From Betaproteobacteria bacterium Ga0077523 (GTDB lineage: Bacteria; Pseudomonadota; Gammaproteobacteria; Burkholderiales; Ga0077523), in the NCBI GenBank assembly GCA_001464695.1, contig LNDQ01000120.1, positions 1 to 64,000 of the forward strand: a DNA stretch of 64,000 nucleotides, read 5' to 3'. Below are positions 35,506 to 38,795 of the stretch, in pieces. The notes under the pieces were generated by a model. It was not told the DNA's origin, ran no database searches, and saw only the letters and a program-made list of their open reading frames with translations. A program made the translations under genes and the position numbers. The number at the start of each line of letters is the position of its first letter. Positions within the stretch are counted from its first letter, which is position 1.

Positions 35506-37701
35506 TCAATCGGCGCGCTTGCCCGATCCGGTTGTACGCCAGATCAGCTGACCCAGCAGTTCCGCGGTGCGATTGACCGACGCCTGGACGCTCTCCAGCA
35601 TGCCGGGCATCTTGGCCATGTCCACGCCGTCGGTGATCTCCATCGCCGCGAGCTGCGCATTGCCGACGATGGTGGACAGGAGATTGCGATACACCACGTC
35701 TGCCTCCGAATCGAGGCGCACGCTGACCGGCCGGTACTGCTTGACGATGCCGTCCTGGAACCGCCGGCGCGCCGCCTCGGCGGCCTTGCGCTCGGTCAGG
35801 TCGATGAAACCGAGCACGAATCCGAGGTAGCGCTCGGGGGACGCGAACACCGGATCGGCGCGGACCAGGATCGGCCTCGTTTCGGAAGCGGCCGACAGCG
35901 TGACCTCGCCGCGCCACGGTCGGCGCTGCAGGAGCAGATCGCGCAGCGGCCGACCGGCCTTCGCGTCGAAGGCGAGGAGCGCCTCCAGGTCGGCGATGGA
36001 CCGCAGATCCGCTCGGCGCTCGCCCAGCAGCGCGTCGAACGATTCGTTGGTGATGAGGATGCTGCCGTCCGGGTCGGCGACGAGGACCGGCTGCTCGGAG
36101 ACGTGGACCTGGTCGCTCACCTGCAGCAACTGATCGCGCGCGATCAGCACGCGCACCGACCGGAACTGCAGCACGATGTCGGAAACCGATTCGCCGATCA
36201 GGCGTGCCGCCGCTAGGTCGGCCGGCGTCCAGGGATCGCAGGTGCCTTCAACCACCTGATGCCATTGCGCGAACGAGCGGCGCGGCGACAACTCCGACGG
36301 GTCGTTGCCCATCACGAACGGCTTGGATGGATTGCCGCCCCACGTGACCGTGCGCACGCGTTCGGGCCGGAACCACAGCAGGTAGTCGCCCGGAGCGCTC
36401 GACAACGGTGCGGCCACGACGCCGCCAGCTACCGGCGTCAACAGGACGAACTCCGGCGCGTCGAGCCCGAGCGAGGCCGTCGCGATCACGGGCGCCTTCG
36501 GTTTGCGGTCGAACCAGCGGCCGATGTCGCGCAGCTCCGGCGTGCCGGGCACCTCGCCGATGGTGAGCACCTGGCCCTCGAACAGCAAGGCGGCGCCATG
36601 CGCGTCGAGCGGCTGCAGCAGCGAGCGCGGATCGTCGAACAACGCCCCTTTCCAATCGCCGTCGCGGGCGATGGCTTCGACCATGCGCTGCTCCAGCCGG
36701 CGCACCGTCAACTCCACGTGGGCCTGGGCGAAGCTCTCGAGGGCTGCGATGCGCGTGGCGAGCGCTTCGGCCAGGAGGTCGCACGCGGCCCGCGCCTCGT
36801 AGTGCACCTGCCGGGGCACGTAGTGGTGACAGGCGACGAGCCCCCAGAGTTTGCCGCCGACCATCAGCGAGACCACGAGCGTCGCGCGCACACCCATGTT
36901 CTTCAGGTACTGGATGTGCAGCGGCGACATGCTGCGCAGCATGCACAGCGACATGTCCAGTTCCTGCCCGGTGACCGACGAGAGCCGTGGCACCAGCGGG
37001 ACGGACGCGGCTTCGACGTCCACCAGCACGCGCACGCGGTTGCGCTCGTACAGGCGGCGGGCCATCTGCGGGATGTCGGAAGCCGGGTAGTGGTTGCCGA
37101 GGTACGGCTCGAGGCCGGCCTGGCGCCGCTCGGCGAAGACCTCGCCGTGCCCTTCCTCGTCGAAACGGTAGATCATCACCCGGTCGTAGCCGGTCACGTG
37201 CTTGAACACCGTCGCGGCCTCGTCGCACAACTCGCGCAGCGAGGACGCGCCGAGGATGACGTTCAGCGCCTGCTGCAACGGAACCGAGTAGTCGACCGGA
37301 GCACCGGCGTGCTCGAGCTCGACAACGAGTTCGCCAGCCGCGGTACGGTGCAGGAGGCTGTCGACCTCGCCGACGAGGTGGCCGGTGCGGCAGCGCACCG
37401 CAATCGGAATCTGCGCGAGCGGGCCATCCAGATGCCCGCGCAAGCGCGCCGCCAGATTGCCGCCGAGGTCGTCGAGTGGATGCCCGACGGGTTCGTCGGG
37501 GCTGTCGAGAAAGCTGCGTGCATTGGCACTCGCCTGGACGATCGCGAGGCCCGGTTCGCGCACCACCAGCAAGGCACCATGGGGCTGTATCGAGCCCGCG
37601 AACTGGATCTGCTCGCGTTCGCAGTTGGACAGGTCCGCCCGCCCGAACAGTGTCGCCGGTGCGTGCGAAACGGGAATTCCGGGGATCGGCGGCCGCGTCA
37701 C
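35506..37701 (-). CDS. bphP: Bacteriophytochrome (PAS-GAF-PHY) with C-terminal PAS and short dimerisation-like helices, no histidine kinase ATPase domain
   Basis: N-terminal Cys (NCEREQIQFAGSIQPHGALLV), GAF HYPASDIPQMARRLYERNRVRVL, SMSPLHIQYLKNMGV, PHY tongue SPRRSFAQWHQVVEG; C-terminus ends LLSTIVGNAQLAAMEITDGVDMAKMPGMLESVQASVNRTAELLGQLIWRTTGSGKRAD; GTG start overlaps upstream TGA. Confidence 0.93.
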   Translation of the reverse strand: MTRPPIPGIPVSHAPATLFGRADLSNCEREQIQFAGSIQPHGALLVVREPGLAIVQASANARSFLDSPDEPVGHPLDDLGGNLAARLRGHLDGPLAQIPIAVRCRTGHLVGEVDSLLHRTAAGELVVELEHAGAPVDYSVPLQQALNVILGASSLRELCDEAATVFKHVTGYDRVMIYRFDEEGHGEVFAERRQAGLEPYLGNHYPASDIPQMARRLYERNRVRVLVDVEAASVPLVPRLSSVTGQELDMSLCMLRSMSPLHIQYLKNMGVRATLVVSLMVGGKLWGLVACHHYVPRQVHYEARAACDLLAEALATRIAALESFAQAHVELTVRRLEQRMVEAIARDGDWKGALFDDPRSLLQPLDAHGAALLFEGQVLTIGEVPGTPELRDIGRWFDRKPKAPVIATASLGLDAPEFVLLTPVAGGVVAAPLSSAPGDYLLWFRPERVRTVTWGGNPSKPFVMGNDPSELSPRRSFAQWHQVVEGTCDPWTPADLAAARLIGESVSDIVLQFRSVRVLIARDQLLQVSDQVHVSEQPVLVADPDGSILITNESFDALLGERRADLRSIADLEALLAFDAKAGRPLRDLLLQRRPWRGEVTLSAASETRPILVRADPVFASPERYLGFVLGFIDLTERKAAEAARRRFQDGIVKQYRPVSVRLDSEADVVYRNLLSTIVGNAQLAAMEITDGVDMAKMPGMLESVQASVNRTAELLGQLIWRTTGSGKRAD

Positions 37702-38795
37702 GGGCTGCGTTCTCGCAGCAGGAAACCGAAATAGTGCGGATCGACGTCGGCGCTGCCCACTGCGGAGATCTCGACCTGCGACTGCCGGCCGCCGGCGCCG
37801 CGCACGACAGCGATGAACTGTCGCACCCGTCCATCGCGCCGAACAGCCGCGAGCAGCCCGCCAAGATCGAGCCCCGCCCCGAACCATCGGTCGATGCATG
37901 CACCGACCGCCGACTGATCTCTGGCCAACTCCACCAGATCGGCGAACGCCTGGTTGCTGCGCAGGACCGTGCCGTCCCGGTCGGTCACCACGAACGCATC
38001 GGGACCGCGCTCGATCAGCTCTTCCACCGGAACCCGATCGGCCTCGGGCTGTGGCGGACCGGCCGCCCCGGCGCGGGTGAGCTGCAGCAGGAACAGGTCA
38101 CCGGTGTCGGAGCTCATGAGCGACGCTCGCGCCAGCCAGAGTTCGCGGTGCGCACCCAGCCGCACGAGAATGCCGGTCGATTTGCCGTGCTCGCGGGCCC
38201 GGCCCAGCATCGCCTGGAACGCCTCCCGGTCCTCGGCCGCCACGTCACCCAGGACGGCGCGGCCTTCGCCGCCATCCGATCGTTCGGTGCGCAGCGCCCG
38301 GATCGCGGCCGGGTTCGCTTCGAGGATGCGCAGGTTCGCGGCGCGGATCAGGATGACCGGTTCATCGGCGTTGTCGAACAGGTGCCGGTACCGCGTTTCT
38401 ACTTCGCGCAGCTTCCAGTACTTGCGCTCCATCGACTGCTGCGCCTCGACCAGGCGGGCCTGCAATTCGGCGACGGCCTGGAGATTGCGTCCGATGGCTA
38501 TGAGGCCGTCGCGCTCGCCCAGGCGGATGGTGGCGTACTCCACCAGGATCTCGCGGCCGCTGGGGAACCGCTGGTTGATCTGCCGGAAGCCGGTGACCCG
38601 CAACCAGCGCGCATCCTCCACGAGCCGCTTCACCTTGTCGCTACCCACACCGGAGACGGTTTCGACCCAGGGGCGACCGATCCACCGATCGAGATCCTCG
38701 TGCGGCAGCGCATGCGACAGGGTCGCGTCCTGGATCACCCCGTCCATGTCGAGATGGAGCGTGATGTCGGGTTGGGGAACGTTGATCCCTATCAT
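37698..38795 (-). CDS. PpsR/CrtJ-like PAS protein lacking the C-terminal HTH
   Basis: PAS-N, Q-linker (LQARLVEAQQSMERKYWKLREVETRYRHLF) and two further PAS domains align with the full-length PpsR at 42751-44169; ends ...SADVDPHYFGFLLRERSP* with no Fis-type HTH. Confidence 0.88.
   Translation of the reverse strand: MIGINVPQPDITLHLDMDGVIQDATLSHALPHEDLDRWIGRPWVETVSGVGSDKVKRLVEDARWLRVTGFRQINQRFPSGREILVEYATIRLGERDGLIAIGRNLQAVAELQARLVEAQQSMERKYWKLREVETRYRHLFDNADEPVILIRAANLRILEANPAAIRALRTERSDGGEGRAVLGDVAAEDREAFQAMLGRAREHGKSTGILVRLGAHRELWLARASLMSSDTGDLFLLQLTRAGAAGPPQPEADRVPVEELIERGPDAFVVTDRDGTVLRSNQAFADLVELARDQSAVGACIDRWFGAGLDLGGLLAAVRRDGRVRQFIAVVRGAGGRQSQVEISAVGSADVDPHYFGFLLRERSP

What the first reader, a model, noticed from the sequence alone, without database searches (positions are those of the whole stretch)
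37698..38795. PpsR paralog without DNA-binding domain, translationally coupled to a bacteriophytochrome
Sequence: the 365-aa protein matches full-length PpsR (42751-44169) through PAS-N, Q-linker and the following PAS domains but stops before the Fis-type HTH. Its TGA overlaps the bphP GTG start (GTGA), and no HTH remnant is present in neighbouring frames, which argues against simple frameshift loss. Knowledge: in Rhodopseudomonas palustris BphP1 binds PpsR2 in a light-dependent way, and the engineered HTH-less Q-PAS1 fragment retains binding. Inference: a natural DNA-binding-free PpsR that could titrate full-length PpsR by hetero-oligomerisation, or act as a light-controlled adaptor between BphP and PpsR.
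Basis: partly seen in the sequence, partly recalled or inferred. Interest (0 to 1): 0.9.

Follow-up and report, generated by a model that had tools for sequence, protein, structure and literature searches.

The report
DNA-binding-free PpsR coupled to phytochrome
Next to a far-red light sensor gene, this photosynthetic bacterium carries a copy of the photosynthesis repressor PpsR that has lost its DNA-binding end; the loss recurs in dozens of relatives, which suggests that the copy works by touching other proteins, and this makes a natural test of how such light sensors control their repressors.

Summary
Window 38795-37698 (minus strand) encodes a 365-aa PpsR with PAS-N, Q-linker, PAS1 and PAS2 and no HTH. 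Its stop overlaps (GTGA) the start of an RpBphP1-class phytochrome gene. It is not an assembly error: 12 other protein clusters (67-94% identity) stop at the same place, one of them on a 5.3-Mb contig.
The pattern is wider than the finding. In 32 of 32 Burkholderiales genomes holding a second PpsR, that copy has an absent or decayed HTH, while the canonical copies and the alphaproteobacterial PpsR2s keep it. HTH function was lost at least twice, and complete truncation occurred at least three times. The second copy goes with a BphP1-type phytochrome (28/32 genomes, against 1/42 with a single PpsR). Selection keeps PAS-N, Q-linker, PAS1 and the phytochrome's HOS output domain. PAS2 is relaxed, and a PAS2 tetramer-contact leucine is lost in every decayed copy examined.
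Best reading: a phytochrome-partnered PpsR2 that no longer binds DNA and acts through protein contacts, most likely by light-gated hetero-oligomerisation with canonical PpsR. The interaction itself and the sign of the effect are untested. I found no earlier report, but only open-licence papers could be searched.

The parts
37698..38795 (-). HTH-less PpsR2-type paralogue, 365 aa: PAS-N (about residues 1-104), Q-linker helix (model helix 106-142), PAS1 (about 135-243), PAS2 (about 256-362); no DNA-binding domain
35506..37701 (-). bphP: RpBphP1-class bacteriophytochrome, 731 aa, PAS-GAF-PHY-PAS9 plus two-helix HOS output region, no histidine kinase domain; GTG start overlaps the upstream TGA
   Evidence: (4GW9, E=1.3e-246)
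34828..35484 (+). heme oxygenase-like gene (biliverdin supply; identified by reading the sequence), convergent with bphP; the ppsR2-bphP-heme oxygenase cassette is conserved
42751..44169 (-). canonical full-length PpsR (HTH intact, with the Cys424-equivalent cysteine); candidate target of the HTH-less copy
42781..42960 (-). HTH of canonical PpsR, the only PpsR-type HTH in the window
44235..45068 (-). B12-binding protein beside ppsR, in the position and of the type of AerR/PpaA anti-repressors

Best explanation
This is a PpsR2-type regulator, partner of an RpBphP1-class bacteriophytochrome, that has lost DNA binding and works through protein contacts. SHOWN HERE by sequence: the HTH is absent; the PAS-N, Q-linker and PAS1 modules and the phytochrome's HOS domain are under strong purifying selection; PAS2 is relaxed; loss or decay of the HTH in the second PpsR is general in Burkholderiales, arose at least twice, and goes with the presence of BphP1. 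INFERRED: the N-Q-PAS1 module dimerises and is bound by the HOS helices of BphP1 in its light-activated Pr form, and the HTH-less chain forms mixed oligomers with the canonical PpsR of the same cell. BphP1 would then set, by far-red light, how much PpsR is held in mixed oligomers that bind DNA poorly. Whether far-red light thereby derepresses (BphP1 draws PpsR away through the adaptor) or represses (BphP1 removes the decoy) cannot be told from sequence.
For: HTH profile scores are bimodal: canonical PpsR 78-95 bits, alphaproteobacterial bphP-linked PpsR2 102-119, all 32 second copies in Burkholderiales between -4 and 45. Recognition-helix residues R, Q, S, Y and K are invariant in 31 of 31 intact copies and scrambled in the second copies. 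BphP1-type genes occur in 28 of 32 genomes with two PpsR and in 1 of 42 with one (Fisher p=5e-15, not corrected for kinship). The four second copies without BphP1 (G440, G575, G609, G722) lie on long branches. dN/dS of window against G004: PAS-N 0.05, Q 0.03, PAS1 0.11, PAS2 0.47; BphP HOS 0.07. Mean identity in the HTH-less clade: N 85, Q 92, PAS1 77, PAS2 58; in intact PpsR2: 65, 88, 62, 66. RsPpsR Leu340, a PAS2 tetramer contact (PMC3949515), is L/M in 31 of 31 intact copies and in 0 of 27 HTH-less or decayed ones, while its Q-linker partners Gln134 and Glu138 are kept. HOS is required for RpBphP1 to bind PpsR2 (PMC6899989); Q-PAS1 alone binds BphP1 (PMC13058837); RsPpsR lacking the HTH still forms dimers and tetramers (PMC3949515). 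A canonical PpsR is present in every genome with a decayed copy.
Against: No interaction was measured or modelled. The loss of Leu340 and the relaxed PAS2 argue against ordinary tetramers, so mixed oligomers would have to form through N-Q-PAS1 or by canonical PAS2 docking on the paralogue's Q-linker. Canonical PpsR is common to phototrophs of this group, so its co-occurrence is weak evidence. G187 has BphP1 and heme oxygenase with no second PpsR, so the paralogue is not indispensable to a BphP1.
Confidence: 0.6

Rival explanations
1. The HTH-less PpsR2 and BphP1 act on a target other than canonical PpsR (for instance a different regulator or the B12 protein AerR); PpsR itself is not touched.
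For: No PpsR contact has been shown; PAS2, which tetramerises in RsPpsR (PMC3949515), is relaxed.
Against: The most constrained parts are PAS-N, Q-linker and PAS1, the PpsR dimerisation module; the Q-linker is near-identical to that of canonical PpsR; the gene lies in the photosynthesis cluster.
Confidence: 0.18
2. It is a stabilising or folding partner, or a passive sink, for BphP1: a decaying repressor kept only because translation of bphP is coupled to it.
For: The GTGA overlap couples translation; PAS2 is relaxed; the Burkholderiaceae copies diverge widely.
Against: Coupling alone would not give dN/dS of 0.015-0.05 on PAS-N and 0.03-0.04 on the Q-linker; in several genomes the two genes do not overlap yet PAS-N and Q are conserved as well as in canonical PpsR.
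Confidence: 0.13
3. The decayed HTHs in the Burkholderiaceae copies have changed DNA specificity rather than lost DNA binding, so those copies are still regulators in their own right.
For: Some still reach Pfam HTH_8 above the cut-off (L060: 25.0 bits against 22).
Against: Recognition helices are not conserved among the copies (motif identity 43% against 97% in canonical PpsR), several end inside the helix (L061, L062, L107, L119), and it cannot apply to the window protein or to L055, L116 and P0054, which have no HTH at all.
Confidence: 0.07
4. Assembly error or recent pseudogenisation removed the HTH.
For: The window comes from a draft genome of 156 contigs.
Against: Twelve other clusters end at the same place, one on a 5.29-Mb contig; dN/dS is low; there is no remnant in any frame.
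Confidence: 0.01

Closest known systems
RpBphP1-PpsR2 of Rhodopseudomonas palustris and BrBphP-PpsR2 of Bradyrhizobium
   Same: Same clade of PpsR by tree with bphP1-linked alphaproteobacterial PpsR2-type proteins, same phytochrome class (PAS-GAF-PHY-PAS9-HOS), adjacent genes in the photosynthesis cluster, and a second PpsR elsewhere in the cluster (PMC10569730).
   Different: R. palustris and Bradyrhizobium PpsR2 are described as DNA-binding repressors with an HTH; here the HTH is gone, so the effect must pass through another protein.
Engineered QPAS1 fragment of PpsR2 (Redchuk 2017, described in PMC13058837)
   Same: Binds BphP1 without an HTH; consists of Q-linker and PAS1.
   Different: A laboratory construct; the natural protein also keeps PAS-N, which stabilises the dimer, and PAS2.
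AppA-PpsR anti-repressor system of Rhodobacter sphaeroides (PMC3949515)
   Same: A photoreceptor's helical bundle controls PpsR oligomerisation by binding the Q-linker.
   Different: AppA is a blue-light flavoprotein acting directly on DNA-binding PpsR; there is no PpsR paralogue in between.
AerR/PpaA B12-dependent anti-repressor
   Same: A non-DNA-binding protein coded beside ppsR that modulates PpsR/CrtJ; a B12 protein of this type is also present in the window.
   Different: Unrelated fold; senses light through B12, not through a phytochrome.

Membership tests
PpsR/CrtJ (TIGR02040) | Match above the curated cut-off (275.4 bits) | tested here: met
   313.7 bits, profile 4-360 of 442
PpsR/CrtJ (TIGR02040) | Three PAS domains and the Q-linker, fold of RsPpsR | tested here: met
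   Pfam PAS hits; model pLDDT 82.6; best PDB match 4hh2, PpsR without HTH, TM 0.75
PpsR/CrtJ as a DNA-binding repressor | C-terminal Fis-type HTH | tested here: not met
   No HTH_8; PpsR-HTH profile -3.8 bits against 89.3 for the canonical copy
PpsR/CrtJ as a DNA-binding repressor | Binds TGT-N12-ACA DNA | not testable with these tools
   Needs a gel shift; the domain that would do it is absent
PpsR2 (BphP1-partner) clade | Groups with PpsR2-type proteins and not with the canonical PpsR of its own genome | tested here: met
   100/100 support; nearest full-length relatives at 58-60% against 39% to its own PpsR. R. palustris PpsR2 itself was not in the tree; the clade is named from its bphP1-linked alphaproteobacterial members
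PpsR2 (BphP1-partner) clade | Adjacent RpBphP1-class phytochrome with HOS domain | tested here: met
   4GW9 match; HOS aligned across relatives
PpsR2 (BphP1-partner) clade | Light-dependent binding to BphP1 | not testable with these tools
   Wet-lab experiment; HOS required in R. palustris (PMC6899989)
Type 1 bacteriophytochrome histidine kinase (considered for bphP) | C-terminal histidine kinase domain | tested here: not met
   No HisKA or HATPase match in Pfam

The most novel reading that the evidence does not exclude
In Burkholderiales the standard output of BphP1-type phytochromes is a pseudo-repressor: a PpsR paralogue that has lost DNA binding more than once and that light switches between binding the phytochrome and poisoning (or bridging to) the canonical PpsR. 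The light signal would then reach photosynthesis promoters only through mixed PpsR oligomers, and HOS would bind the Q-linker/PAS1 part and not the HTH.
Probability: 0.45. Interest if true: 0.8.

Novelty: new variant of a known kind. Interest (0 to 1): 0.64.

Why it matters
BphP1-PpsR2 is a model light switch and a widely used near-infrared optogenetic tool, yet two published pictures of the contact disagree: HOS against the HTH (SAXS model, PMC6899989) and Q-linker/PAS1 as sufficient partner (QPAS1, PMC13058837). Lineages that lost the HTH but keep HOS under strong selection favour the second picture and offer ready-made test proteins. The recurrent loss also shows a repressor turning into a non-DNA-binding signalling partner, something annotation hides because these proteins pass the PpsR repressor model and are named transcriptional regulators.

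Tried and rejected
Assembly error or frameshift: rejected. A single origin of HTH loss: rejected, because the Burkholderiaceae clade and the window's clade lie in separate fully supported groups with intact members in the PpsR2 group; whether the two groups inside PpsR2 share one loss of function is open (85/92 support). PpsR sites TGT-N12-ACA as evidence of regulation: 9 in the window against 6.2 expected, none before the paralogue, so no use. Promoter and terminator scans of 35400-39300: nothing found. Literature for a natural HTH-less PpsR: five searches, no report found in open-licence papers. A tree of 103 rows finished only in quick mode, so a 46-row careful tree was built. A structural model of the mixed oligomer could not be made with single-chain folding.

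Full report
WHAT IS THERE. The finding is on the minus strand. Positions 38795-37698 code for 365 residues; the TGA stop shares its bases with the GTG start of bphP (37701-35506) as GTGA. The protein matches the window's full-length PpsR (44169-42751) at 39% over residues 10-361. It passes the NCBI PpsR-CrtJ model (313.7 bits, cut-off 275.4) but covers only positions 4-360 of 442, and has PAS domains but no HTH_8. A PpsR-specific HTH profile scanned over six frames of the window finds only the HTH of the full-length PpsR (89.8 bits) and nothing near the short copy. The AlphaFold2 model (mean pLDDT 82.6, pTM 0.38) has PAS-N, a long helix at 106-142, PAS1 and PAS2, and its best match in the PDB is 4hh2, R. 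sphaeroides PpsR deliberately made without its HTH (TM 0.75).

THE PHYTOCHROME. BphP matches R. palustris BphP1 (4GW9) from residue 16 to 641 with E=1.3e-246, followed by the two-helix HOS region, and has no kinase domain. The heme oxygenase-like gene at 34828-35484 converges on it; I named it by reading its sequence. The cassette ppsR2-bphP-heme oxygenase recurs in Burkholderiales and, with the heme oxygenase gene on either side, in Rhodospirillales.

NOT AN ARTEFACT. Twelve other protein clusters (P0006-P0017, 67-94% identity) end at the same place, one on a 5.29-Mb contig. Two other genomes of the same genus have the same gene and overlap (G004, G005). Between the window and G005 the gene has dN/dS 0.096, and against G004 0.206; PAS-N is at 0.015 and 0.050.

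A WIDER PATTERN. In the same genus G001 has a 376-aa copy with no HTH, ending TTGA on bphP, and G002 and G007 have 446-aa copies whose recognition helix is degraded. I then took all genomes with two PpsR found among 400 Burkholderiales, 301 of one family and 67 of another (fetched). In 32 of 32 the second copy has an absent or decayed HTH (-4 to 45 bits), while canonical copies score 78-95 and alphaproteobacterial bphP-linked PpsR2s 102-119. In the second copies the recognition-helix residues R, Q, S, Y and K are scrambled, although they are invariant in all 31 intact copies compared. In the same comparison the canonical copies carry the Cys424-equivalent cysteine and the second copies do not.

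ORIGIN. In a tree of the PAS region the window's HTH-less clade lies inside the PpsR2 clade (100/100 for both), with P0054, L055 and L056 as a possible sister (85/92). The Burkholderiaceae second copies form another group (100/100) that is not nested in PpsR2. Because PpsR2 contains intact members, loss of HTH function happened at least twice. Complete truncation happened at least three times: in the window's clade, in L055 (its sister L056 still has the decayed domain) and in L116 (its sisters keep theirs); P0054 may be a fourth.

LINK TO BPHP1. A BphP1-type gene (match reaching about residue 720) is present in 28 of 32 genomes with a second PpsR and in 1 of 42 with one PpsR (p=5e-15 without correction for kinship). 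In 27 of the 32 a bphP reading frame directly follows the second ppsR; in G586 that adjacent frame is a partial one. The four second copies without BphP1 (G440, G575, G609, G722) lie on branches longer than those of their nearest relatives (0.70 vs 0.11-0.22; 0.58 vs 0.23; 1.06 vs about 0.5; 0.88 vs 0.5), as expected if the phytochrome is what keeps them. The exception is G187, with BphP1 and no second PpsR.

WHICH PARTS ARE KEPT. Mean pairwise identity in the HTH-less clade is 85 (PAS-N), 92 (Q), 77 (PAS1) and 58 (PAS2); in intact PpsR2 it is 65, 88, 62 and 66. Burkholderiaceae second copies have 60/70/48/40 against 53/72/44/60 in canonical copies, with the HTH motif at 43 against 97. So PAS-N, Q and PAS1 are held as tightly as ever and PAS2 is relaxed. 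dN/dS agrees: 0.05, 0.03, 0.11 and 0.47 for the four modules against G004. A residue-level trait follows: RsPpsR Leu340 on PAS2 contacts Gln134 of the Q-linker in the tetramer (PMC3949515). Its equivalent is L or M in 31 of 31 intact proteins and in 0 of 27 HTH-less or decayed ones, while Gln134 and Glu138 are kept almost without exception. The numbering was transferred through the 4hh2 alignment with an offset of five, which places all four named residues correctly.

MECHANISM. Established elsewhere: HOS is needed for RpBphP1 to bind PpsR2 after 760-nm light, and the authors modelled HOS against the HTH (PMC6899989); a Q-linker/PAS1 fragment suffices as BphP1 partner (PMC13058837); AppA binds the PpsR Q-linker with a four-helix bundle (PMC3949515); RsPpsR without HTH still forms dimers and tetramers. 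In the window's lineage HOS is among the most constrained parts of BphP (dN/dS 0.02-0.07) though there is no HTH for it to bind. Inference: HOS contacts the Q-linker/PAS1 part. Inference: the HTH-less chain forms mixed oligomers with canonical PpsR through N-Q-PAS1, and light-activated BphP1 competes with or joins them. The direction of the effect is open, and no interaction was tested.

LIMITS. Genomes outside Burkholderiales were only sampled through one scan. Some decayed HTHs still score above the Pfam cut-off (L060), so DNA binding is excluded only for the truncated proteins. Only open-licence papers were searchable.

Noticed in passing
L056, L057, L060-L062, L100-L122: In 26 Burkholderiaceae and related genomes plus G002/G007 the second PpsR is decayed at its C-terminal end: a scrambled recognition helix, in several cases ending inside it (in one, L116, no HTH at all).
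   Followed up: yes
L116:4200-5438: Independent complete loss of the HTH in a genome (G609) without BphP1, on a very long branch; possibly a PpsR paralogue decaying after loss of the phytochrome.
   Followed up: partly
L125 (G440): The bphP and heme oxygenase genes are missing between the decayed ppsR2 and the convergent canonical ppsR, an order otherwise like G325 (L062): a natural deletion of the phytochrome.
   Followed up: partly
L123:7427-9643: G187 has BphP1 and heme oxygenase but no second PpsR, with its single intact PpsR about 25 kb away.
   Followed up: partly
window 38860-39156 (-): A 98-aa hydrophobic reading frame between bchP and the ppsR-like gene; a similar frame sits in the same place in G002 (L008:953-1234). 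Not identified.
   Followed up: no
P0009 and others named by NCBI/JGI: HTH-less proteins are annotated as transcriptional regulator PpsR because they pass TIGR02040 without the HTH.
   Followed up: yes
L024:7295-9544: In this Rhodospirillales MAG the bphP downstream of ppsR2 is split by an in-frame stop; may be real or a sequencing error.
   Followed up: no
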